The translations under genes were made by a program, and so were the position numbers. The notes under the pieces were generated by a model. It saw only the letters and a program-made list of their open reading frames with translations, did no database searches and had not been told where the DNA came from. Positions 22,051-33,542 of a DNA stretch of 33,542 bases are shown here, in pieces (position 1 is the stretch's first letter; each line of letters starts with the position of its first letter). The DNA comes from Candidatus Hydrogenedentota bacterium (GTDB taxonomy: Bacteria > Hydrogenedentota > Hydrogenedentia > Hydrogenedentales > CAITNO01), in NCBI GenBank assembly GCA_012730105.1, contig JAAYBJ010000123.1:1-33542 (forward strand). Reading direction: 5' to 3'.

Positions 22051-22593
22051 ATGAATTCATGGTTGAGAAAAGGAATGCTGCTGGGGATGCTGGCCGTAAT
22101 GGCGCTGACCGTCATGGGATGCCAGCAAAACCAATTGGTAGGCAAATGGGAGTGCATCGCCTATAATGAGGGCAATACTGCGGCAAATTTACTCAATGAA
22201 GTGTTTGTGTTCAACCAGGACGGTACCTTTACCTGGACATCGTCCATGGTCCTTCCGAGAAGAATCATTTACGGCACCTACACCACCAATGCCCAGGCAA
22301 ATCCTTTAACCATCGACGTTGTATTCACCAAGTACAGCATAAACGGCTTGGAAACAGACATTCAGGATGTTACCTCCCTGGGTGTGTACAAATTCACAGG
22401 GTCGGGCAACACGCAGCGCCTCTACATGAATCATTTCGGCGGGGCAACACGCCCCTCAGCCAGCACACTGGACAAGGAAGTGGGGCCAGTATGGGTCGGC
22501 AACAAGGTCAACGAAAAATGGCTTGACCTGGCTGAAAAAGGACTGGATATGCTTCTTGGGGCGTGGGGTGTTTCAGTCTTTGCGGGATCATAA
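22051..22593 (+). CDS. Small lipoprotein with lipocalin-like GKWEC domain, paralog 1
   Basis: 180 residues. A lipoprotein signal with lipobox VMGC (Cys24) is preceded by a positive n-region MNSWLRKG. The mature chain opens with LVGKWECIAY, then FVFNQDGTFTW and IIYGTYTTN, the usual order of bacterial lipocalin-like domains (G-K-W at the first strand, DGTF hairpin, Y-G-T-Y). The C-terminal 50 residues (GPVWVGNKVNEKWLDLAEKG) look helical. Function unknown; ligand binding or envelope maintenance are family-level guesses. AGGAG stands 8 nt before ATG. The next gene encodes a same-length paralog. Confidence 0.85.
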   Translation: MNSWLRKGMLLGMLAVMALTVMGCQQNQLVGKWECIAYNEGNTAANLLNEVFVFNQDGTFTWTSSMVLPRRIIYGTYTTNAQANPLTIDVVFTKYSINGLETDIQDVTSLGVYKFTGSGNTQRLYMNHFGGATRPSASTLDKEVGPVWVGNKVNEKWLDLAEKGLDMLLGAWGVSVFAGS

Positions 22594-23155: not shown

Positions 23156-23698
23156 ATGAATTCATGGTTAAGAAAAGGAATGTTGGCGGCGTTGTTGGCT
23201 GTATTGTTGTTGACTGTGATGGGATGCCAGCAGAACCCGCTAATCGGCAAATGGGAGTGCATCGCTTATGCCAACGGCAATACAGCAGCGAACCTGCTCA
23301 ATGAAGTGTTTGTGTTCAACCAGGACGGCACCTTTACCTGGATAACCTCACGGTCACTCCCGAGAAAGACATTTTATGGCACTTACACGGTCAATACACA
23401 GGCAAATCCTTTCAGTATAGATGTTATCATCACCAAGTACAGCACAAACGGCTTGGAAACCGACATCCCGGATGTTAGCTCCCTGGGGGTGTATAAGTTT
23501 ACAGGCTCGGGCGACACGCAACGCCTCTATCTGAATCATACCGGCGGGGCAACGCGCCCATCCGCCAGCACGTTGGATAAAGAAGTGGGCCCGGTATGGG
23601 TAGGCAACAAGGTCAACGAAAAATGGCTTGACCTGGCTGAAAAAGGACTGGACACGCTACTTGGCGCATGGGGAGTTTCGGCTTTTTCAGGCTCATAA
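23156..23698 (+). CDS. Small lipoprotein with lipocalin-like GKWEC domain, paralog 2
   Basis: 180 residues aligning without gaps to the gene at 22051; I count 31 differences, about 83 percent identity. Lipobox VMGC (Cys24), LIGKWECIAY, FVFNQDGTFTW and FYGTYTVN are all kept. Differences concentrate in the signal peptide and in residues 63-130, while 130-166 are identical. The about 40 bases before each ATG are also similar, so the duplication included the ribosome binding region; here it is AGGA, weaker than the AGGAG of paralog 1. Same functional uncertainty as paralog 1. Confidence 0.85.
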   Translation: MNSWLRKGMLAALLAVLLLTVMGCQQNPLIGKWECIAYANGNTAANLLNEVFVFNQDGTFTWITSRSLPRKTFYGTYTVNTQANPFSIDVIITKYSTNGLETDIPDVSSLGVYKFTGSGDTQRLYLNHTGGATRPSASTLDKEVGPVWVGNKVNEKWLDLAEKGLDTLLGAWGVSAFSGS

Positions 23699-32447: not shown

Positions 32448-32518
32448 ATAGATGCAGGGAGAGCATCACGCATTCTCAAACTGTAACATGCCCACGCGCG
32501 AACCCGTTCTGGTAAAAG

Positions 32519-32680
32519 TCCCAACAAAATCTTCAGGATGATCCCGCAGGGATTCAGGCCGTTAGCCGGTAGTTAAGCGCAACGACACCACCTCTGCTAA
32601 CAATCCCAACAAAATCTCCGGAAGAATCCCGGCAGGGATTCAAGCCATTAGCCGGTGGTTGAGCGCAGCGATACCACCGG
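32519..32680. repeat. Two tandem copies of an approximately 74-nt dispersed repeat
   Basis: Copy 1 (32519-32592) and copy 2 (32604-32680) share TCCCAACAAAATCT, GCAGGGATTCA, GTTAGCCGGT or ATTAGCCGGT, AGCGCA and ACCACC with a few substitutions. The end of copy 2 is read in one frame as VERSDTTG, a phrase I recall from spurious ORFs over intergenic repeats. Non-coding. Confidence 0.75.
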
Positions 32681-32700
32681 ACCTAGCCCCCCATCAGGTC

Positions 32701-32750
32701 CATCCCGGCAGGGATGGAGGAATCGTTTTGCCTTCATCCCTGCCGGGATG
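32701..32750. repeat. Perfect 16-bp inverted repeat beside the CRISPR array
   Basis: CATCCCGGCAGGGATG (32701-32716) and CATCCCTGCCGGGATG (32735-32750) are exact reverse complements, 18-nt loop. Each arm is itself nearly palindromic, so a cruciform is possible. Confidence 0.85.
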
Positions 32751-32785
32751 ATGACACAAAACCATCTTCAATCGGTGGTGTCGCT

Positions 32786-33542
32786 GTACTCAACGCCTTG
32801 CGGCATCAGAGGGGAAAACAAAATCTGGCCGATTACGGCACCGGGAGTGAAAATAGCGTGCTCAACGCCTTGCGGCATCAGAGGGGAAAACAAAAGTACC
32901 TTCGGCCGAAGGTGGCCCCGAACAACTAGTGCTCAACGCCTTGCGGCATCAGAGGGGAAAACAAAAAGTGTTGGATCAAACATCTGCTGAAGGACTTTTA
33001 GAGTGCTCAACGCCTTGCGGCATCAGAGGGGAAAACAAAAAATGAACCACTTACAGACGCTTGGACGGGTCGAAGTGCTCAACGCCTTGCGGCATCAGAG
33101 GGGAAAACAACGAAAAGCGCAGGCACCAAACTTAAGAATTTAAAGTGCTCAACGCCTTGCGGCATCAGAGGGGAAAACAATGGCGGTGGCGGTGCAATCT
33201 CTTTTGCCACTTCAAGTGCTCAACGCCTTACGGCATCAGAGGGGAAAACAAATCTACACGCGCTCACATGTCCCGGTATTGTGCCCCGTGCTCAACGCCT
33301 TGCGGCATCAGAGGGGAAAACAATTCAAAGGAAGATAACTTCTCATCTTTTGAAAAGAGTACTCAACGCCTTGCGGCATCAGAGGGGAAAACAAACAGCG
33401 GGATCGCCGGGATGCTCATCTTCTTCATCCTTGTGCTCAACGCCTTGCGGCATCAGAGGGGAAAACAAAAATCGTTTTTGCGGGTACACGCACTCCCAGA
33501 ATTGATGTGCTCAACGCCTTGCGGCATCAGAGGGGAAAACAA
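32786..33542. CRISPR. CRISPR array: 11 repeats of 36 bp, 10 spacers of 34-38 bp (runs to the edge)
   Basis: Repeats start at 32786, 32858, 32929, 33003, 33075, 33145, 33216, 33288, 33359, 33433 and 33507. The repeat begins GTGCTCAACGCCTTGCGGCA and ends TCAGAGGGGAAAACAA. Variants: position 3 is A in repeats 1 and 9, position 15 is A in repeat 7; all others are identical. All ten spacers differ. Positions 8-21 form a hairpin that is better in the minus-strand RNA (AUGCC-GCAA-GGCGU, including a G-U pair, GNRA loop) than in the plus. The left flank consists of dispersed repeats and is not AT-rich like a leader, so the leader and cas genes are more likely beyond the right edge; the array was probably transcribed leftwards. 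Subtype cannot be assigned without cas genes. Confidence 0.97.

What the first reader, a model, noticed from the sequence alone, without database searches (positions are those of the whole stretch)
32786..33542. CRISPR repeat forms a GNRA-capped hairpin only on the minus strand, and the loop variant keeps it
Positions 8-21 give AUGCC-GCAA-GGCGU in minus-strand RNA: five pairs with one G-U, GNRA loop. The plus-strand version has an A-C mismatch. Repeat 7 changes position 15, turning the loop into GUAA, still GNRA. This predicts leftward transcription with leader and cas genes beyond the right edge. Repeat 1, at the left end, has a substitution, as expected for the old end, although repeat 9 shares it.
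Basis: partly seen in the sequence, partly recalled or inferred. Interest (0 to 1): 0.5.

Follow-up and report, generated by a model that had tools for sequence, protein, structure and literature searches.

The report
Trailer end of a CRISPR array
This is the old end of an ordinary bacterial CRISPR immune array; its RNA hairpin shows which strand is read, and the matching cas genes were found on another contig of the same genome, pointing the predicted way.

Summary
Window 32786-33542 holds 11 repeats of 36 nt and 10 spacers, cut off by the contig end. Minus-strand RNA folds into GAUGCC-GCAA-GGCGUU; repeat 7 has GUAA; the plus strand lacks the hairpin.

The prediction (leftward transcription, leader and cas genes past the right edge) holds. 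The only other contig of this genome with the repeat, C150, ends in the array and carries cas6-cas3-cas8b/cmx8-cas7-cas5-cas4/1-cas2, an AT-rich leader and four repeats, all on one strand. The join C67/C150 is inferred, not sequenced. In all 13 loci, this one included, where cas genes of this kind and the repeat were both seen, the hairpin strand is the cas strand and the array follows the cas genes. Published work on Leptospira, whose repeat shares this 3' half, gives the same sense strand and Cas6 processing.

It is a new member of a known kind: type I-B, 'MYXAN' variant. The loop argument is weak: 4 of 12 loop substitutions keep GNRA, and family members carry UUCG or GUUA. Repeat 1 as 'old end' is right, but not because of its substitution. 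New in passing: repeat 1 is joined in register to half of a dispersed palindromic element. No protospacer was found.

The parts
32786..33542 (-). CRISPR array, trailer-end part: 11 repeats of 36 nt, 10 spacers; continues past the contig end
   Evidence: orientation from C150 and Rfam CRISPR-DR33 hits on the minus strand
32786..32821 (-). Repeat 1, trailer-most; position 3 G to A (3' end GAGTAC in the crRNA sense)
33216..33251 (-). Repeat 7; loop GUAA instead of GCAA
33359..33394 (-). Repeat 9; same substitution as repeat 1
33507..33542 (-). Repeat 11, at the contig end; with the base before it, an exact 37-nt overlap with the end of contig C150
32774..32794 (.). Junction: half of a dispersed palindromic element runs in register into the first 9 nt of repeat 1
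32508..32678 (.). Two tandem copies (about 86 bp) of the same dispersed element
   Evidence: (families D3, D4)
32701..32750 (-). Strong inverted repeat (20-nt arms) just past the trailer end; possible stop for array transcription, inferred only
   Evidence: I1; -46.1 kcal/mol for 32695-32785 minus strand, z -6.91

Best explanation
The feature is the trailer-proximal (oldest) part of the array of a type I-B 'MYXAN' CRISPR-Cas system. A promoter in the leader, between cas2 and the first repeat on contig C150, drives a pre-crRNA that runs leftward through the window. Each repeat folds into the GAUGCC-loop-GGCGUU hairpin; Cas6/Cmx6 binds it and cuts at its 3' base, leaving an 8-nt 5' handle UUGAGCAC on each crRNA, which is loaded into Cas8b-Cas7-Cas5-Cas6 Cascade and recruits Cas3. 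Shown here: repeats, hairpin, cas gene content, gene order, relative orientation. Inferred: join of contigs C67 and C150, promoter, cleavage position, activity.
For: Same-genome contig C150: four identical repeats in hairpin orientation follow cas2, all on the strand of the cas genes. Cas6/Cmx6 196 bits (cut-off 98.85), Cmx8 509 bits (cut-off 150), Cas1-MYXAN 456 bits (cut-off 358.05), Cas2. Leader 280 nt, 60% A+T. Only these two contigs carry the repeat, both end inside it, with a 37-nt exact overlap. Ten of 18 loci examined hold a cas2 match; in all 10 the hairpin strand equals the cas2 strand and the array lies downstream; the same in C150, in L094 (cas4/1) and in L133: 13 of 13. Rfam CRISPR-DR33 matches all 11 repeats on the minus strand with the same 6-pair stem. 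Leptospira: sense repeat ending GATGCCGTTAGGCGTTGAGCAC, transcribed, cut by Cas6 to 71-nt crRNA (PMC9372919).
Against: The join of the contigs is not sequenced: the array middle may be missing, or there could be two arrays. No protospacer was found, so neither PAM nor spacer sense could be tested. The DR33 hits stay below the Rfam gathering score (best 30.4 against 39). Cas7 and Cas5/DevS of C150 score below the curated NCBIfam cut-offs. No RNA data exist here.
Confidence: 0.93

Rival explanations
1. The window array is a separate array with the same repeat, not joined to the C150 cas locus, served in trans by its Cas proteins.
For: The join is not sequenced; genomes with two or more arrays of one repeat exist, e.g. 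Laspinema palackyanum D2a with L022, L024 and L030.
Against: Exactly two contigs carry the repeat, each with one open end inside the array, with complementary ends (a leader-side and a trailer-side fragment) and a 37-nt overlap. In relative G013 the array is split over two contigs in the same way.
Confidence: 0.08
2. The array is transcribed rightward (plus strand) from a leader on the left, beside the metC-like gene.
For: The flank left of the array is not coding, and repeat 1 differs from the consensus, as a leader-side repeat could.
Against: Left flank 45.8% A+T, and repetitive palindromes instead of a leader. No Cas protein among 18 window proteins. C150 orientation, 13 of 13 loci, Rfam strand, Leptospira data. 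Plus-strand repeat folds no better than shuffles.
Confidence: 0.02
3. The GNRA loop itself is a recognised feature kept by selection.
For: GCAA, GUAA and GAAA occur in this genome, G013, Synechocystis and others.
Against: G004 has UUCG in an otherwise identical stem; Leptospira has GUUA, GUCA and others; one substitution in 11 repeats is no test, as 4 of 12 loop changes keep GNRA.
Confidence: 0.15

Closest known systems
Synechocystis sp. PCC 6714 plasmid pSYLB type I-B (MYXAN/Cmx8) CRISPR-Cas, reconstituted Cascade (PMC11096372)
   Same: Same gene order cas6-cas3-cmx8-cas7-cas5-cas4/1-cas2-array; same repeat 3' part GATGCCGTAAGGCGTTGAGCAC but for the loop; same relative orientation.
   Different: Different 5' half of the repeat; Cas proteins 31-51% identical; an extra small ORF between cas5 and cas4/1.
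Leptospira interrogans subtype I-B arrays (PMC9372919)
   Same: Repeat 3' half identical but for the loop (GTTA instead of GCAA); sense strand and Cas6 processing shown by experiment.
   Different: Loop is not GNRA; several short arrays between two cas operons; different 5' half.
Rfam CRISPR-DR33 (RF01343)
   Same: Same strand, same 6-pair stem and handle in all 11 repeats.
   Different: Best score 30.4 bits, below the gathering score of 39; 5' half differs.
Relative G013 (same family, other genus)
   Same: 33-nt core repeat differs at two positions, one of them in the loop (GAAA); complete cmx8 system, 51-75% identical proteins.
   Different: Trailer flank has no dispersed element.

Membership tests
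Type I-B CRISPR-Cas, MYXAN variant with Cmx8 | Cas8b/Cmx8 large subunit | tested here: met
   TIGR04413, 509 bits, cut-off 150, on C150
Type I-B CRISPR-Cas, MYXAN variant with Cmx8 | Cas6/Cmx6 | tested here: met
   TIGR02807, 196.1 bits, cut-off 98.85
Type I-B CRISPR-Cas, MYXAN variant with Cmx8 | Cas4-Cas1 fusion of MYXAN type | tested here: met
   TIGR03983, 456 bits, cut-off 358.05, plus Cas4 domain
Type I-B CRISPR-Cas, MYXAN variant with Cmx8 | Cas7/DevR and Cas5/DevS | tested here: inconclusive
   Right order and significant E-values, but Cas7 42.6 against 72.75 bits and Cas5/DevS 108.5 against 111.5 bits; the general Cas5 model is met
Type I-B CRISPR-Cas, MYXAN variant with Cmx8 | Cas3 helicase-nuclease | tested here: met
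   Cas3 core TIGR01587 147.9 bits, cut-off 102.45
Type I-B CRISPR-Cas, MYXAN variant with Cmx8 | Cas locus physically linked to the window array | tested here: inconclusive
   Same repeat, complementary open ends, 37-nt overlap; no read across
Type I-B CRISPR-Cas, MYXAN variant with Cmx8 | crRNA production and interference | not testable with these tools
   needs RNA and plasmid assays
Rfam CRISPR-DR33 | Score at or above the gathering threshold (39 bits) | tested here: not met
   best 30.4 bits; none at gathering

The most novel reading that the evidence does not exclude
In this repeat family the stem and the handle are frozen while the four-base loop drifts, even between two stable tetraloop classes: GNRA (this genome, G013) and UUCG (G004, same bacterial family, with the other Cas8 variant Cmx1). 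Cas6 would then read stem and handle and ask of the loop only that it folds. Separately, the old end of this array may have been made by a microhomology deletion into a dispersed palindromic element that shares GCTCAAC with the repeat.
Probability: 0.45. Interest if true: 0.35.

Novelty: new member of a known kind. Interest (0 to 1): 0.2.

Why it matters
It shows that strand and the side of the cas genes can be read correctly from a repeat alone on a broken contig, and it links a cas-less array fragment to its cas operon elsewhere in a fragmented genome. The loop series GNRA/UUCG/GUUA on one constant stem is a ready natural test of what Cas6 of this subtype recognises.

Tried and rejected
Protospacers: BLAST of the whole array (10 spacers) against 50,697 phage and 72,556 plasmid records gave no convincing spacer match (best phage E 0.8 among the 20 of 23 records listed; several plasmid hits are other CRISPR arrays). 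Exact 19-21-nt seeds of 7 of the 10 window spacers (1, 2, 4, 6, 7, 9, 10) in IMG/VR: six gave none; spacer 9 gave 4 contigs, but over the full spacer only 22-24 of 38 bases agree. Spacers 3, 5, 8 and the three on C150 were not tested there. The array against 68 genomes of the phylum gave only other arrays and weak hits; a weak own-genome match on C208 (82%, E 0.00675) was fetched but not followed.

Rfam at the gathering threshold: nothing in the window; the DR33 match is below threshold.

Right half of the dispersed element on C150, as the other side of an insertion: none found. Empty site in three same-genus relatives: their metC flanks have neither array nor element, so they do not date the junction.

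Loop survey: the first set was chosen by a pattern that fixes the GCAA loop, so its loops are no evidence; G013, G004, the plasmids and the patterns with an open loop are.

Full report
What is there. At 32786-33542 lie 11 repeats of 36 nt (consensus GTGCTCAACGCCTTGCGGCATCAGAGGGGAAAACAA) and 10 spacers of 34-38 nt. Contig C67 ends with the last base of repeat 11. Repeats 1 and 9 carry position 3 G to A; repeat 7 carries position 15 G to A; the other eight are identical.

The hairpin. RNAfold gives -10.3 kcal/mol for it and -6.0 for the plus strand. Against 2000 dinucleotide shuffles the minus strand has z -1.95 (4.05% fold as well), the plus strand +0.52; a GNRA loop on 5 or more pairs arises in 0.2% of the minus-strand shuffles.

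Where the cas genes are. A search of the window's own genome (343 contigs) with the repeat core, up to 3 mismatches, finds it on two contigs only: C67 (the window, 11 copies) and C150 (4 copies, at the contig end). C150 carries upstream of those repeats, all on one strand: cas6/cmx6 (TIGR02807, 196.1 bits), cas3, cas8b/cmx8 (TIGR04413, 509 bits), cas7, cas5/devS, a cas4-cas1 fusion (TIGR03983, 456 bits), cas2, then 280 nt of leader (60.4% A+T) and the first repeat. Cas7 and Cas5/DevS score under their curated NCBIfam cut-offs (42.6 of 72.75; 108.5 of 111.5), so they are assigned by position and by weaker matches. The repeats on C150 read TTGTTTTCCCC...GAGCAC in the direction of the cas genes. 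Turned round, the end of C150 overlaps the end of the window by exactly 37 nt, a T and one repeat. The overlap is one repeat long, so it cannot prove the join nor tell how many units are missing. In relative G013 the array is broken in the same way: C64 holds 2 repeats beside the cas genes, C72 holds 32.

Does the rule hold elsewhere? I examined 18 loci with repeats of this family (15, plus Synechocystis L064 and G013 L068, L069). Ten hold a match to cas2 of C150; in all ten the hairpin strand is the cas2 strand and the array lies downstream of cas2; the other eight hold no cas gene match. The same layout is seen in C150 itself, in G004 (L094, array following cas4/1) and in Synechococcus NIES-970 (L133): 13 of 13, from 12 genomes (L024 and L030 are one genome). 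Eight of the 13 are cyanobacterial, so these are not 13 independent events.

Independent knowledge. Rfam CRISPR-DR33 matches all 11 repeats on the minus strand with the same six-pair stem; the scores (22.9-30.4 bits) are below the gathering score of 39, so I do not file it there. PMC9372919 (abstract, passages and sections 13-15 read) gives for Leptospira interrogans subtype I-B the sense repeat CTGAATATAACTTTGATGCCGTTAGGCGTTGAGCAC, transcription by RT-PCR, cutting by Cas6 to 71-nt crRNAs, and a predicted PAM ATG. PMC11096372 (passages and section 6 read) describes the Synechocystis PCC 6714 type I-B 'Myxan' Cascade with a crRNA of about 71 nt and PAM AYG; its locus has the same gene order and orientation as here. 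An 8-nt handle UUGAGCAC for the present array follows from these and from the stem position; it was not measured.

The loop across the family. GCAA: this genome and most loci, which were selected for it. GAAA: G013 and the WOR-3 contig L029. GTAA: Synechocystis PCC 6714, Synechococcus NIES-970 and one repeat on Picosynechococcus pAQ4. TTCG: the array of G004, 29 of whose repeats match the stem pattern and whose large subunit is Cmx1, not Cmx8. GTTA and GTCA: Leptospira plasmids. The stem GATGCC/GGCGTT hardly changes, so there is no covariation to count; the loop changes freely, into a second stable class and into non-GNRA forms. Paper searches for GNRA or UNCG loops in CRISPR repeats (listings only) showed no paper on that subject; the library lacks most subscription journals.

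The left end. Its substitution is no evidence of that: repeat 9 shares it. More telling is the flank. Positions 32774-32794 (GGTGGTGTCGCTGTACTCAAC) run in register with a dispersed element (consensus CCGGTGGTnTCGCTTCGCTCAACCACCGGCTAATGGCTT from 12 aligned copies). The pattern search gave 16 places in the genome: 3 in the window, 12 elsewhere with the element's flanks, and one (C186:17311) without them. At the array the element stops inside its loop, where it shares GCTCAAC with the consensus repeat, and the repeat goes on in place of its right half. A deletion by microhomology that removed older units is my reading. It is an inference from one junction: a local cluster (two complete copies at 32508-32678) makes coincidence less remote, the right half was not found on C150, and G013 shows no such junction. 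The three same-genus relatives have neither array nor element beside this metC-like gene. Just left of it, 32701-32750 is a strong inverted repeat (the stretch 32695-32785 folds at -46.1 kcal/mol, z -6.91), which could stop leftward transcription; that function was not tested.

Verdict. Observation confirmed; interpretation supported, with the contig join inferred. The system is an ordinary type I-B MYXAN CRISPR-Cas locus in a bacterium with two other cas1 loci (I-C on C256, I-G on C329). In its phylum it is rare: 2 of 68 genomes have cmx8.

Noticed in passing
window 32774-32794: The trailer-most repeat is joined in register to half of a dispersed palindromic element that shares GCTCAAC with the repeat.
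   Followed up: partly
L094 9019-11160 (G004:C38): A relative's array keeps the stem GATGCC/GGCGTT but has a UUCG loop; its large subunit is Cmx1 instead of Cmx8; the last repeat is degenerate at its 3' end.
   Followed up: partly
L106-L130 (IMG/VR contigs): 25 stretches of viral contigs carry the stem-loop-handle pattern, mostly once; L122 and L123 have four relaxed copies at irregular spacing with differing loops. Some may be chance, some solitary repeats carried by phages.
   Followed up: no
L036 (G000:C256) and L037 (G000:C329): The genome also holds a type I-C locus (cas1c, cas4, csd2, csd1, cas3) and a type I-G locus (cas4/1, csb2, csb1, csx17, cas3).
   Followed up: no
window 22051-22593 and 23156-23698: Two tandem, similar 180-aa predicted proteins with lipoprotein-like starts; the first was searched in Pfam with no match.
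   Followed up: no
window 32701-32750: Inverted repeat with 20-nt arms beyond the trailer end; very stable as RNA.
   Followed up: partly
G000:C208:6119-6163: Weak match (82%, E 0.00675) to the end of repeat 5 plus spacer 5 in the own genome; fetched, not examined.
   Followed up: no
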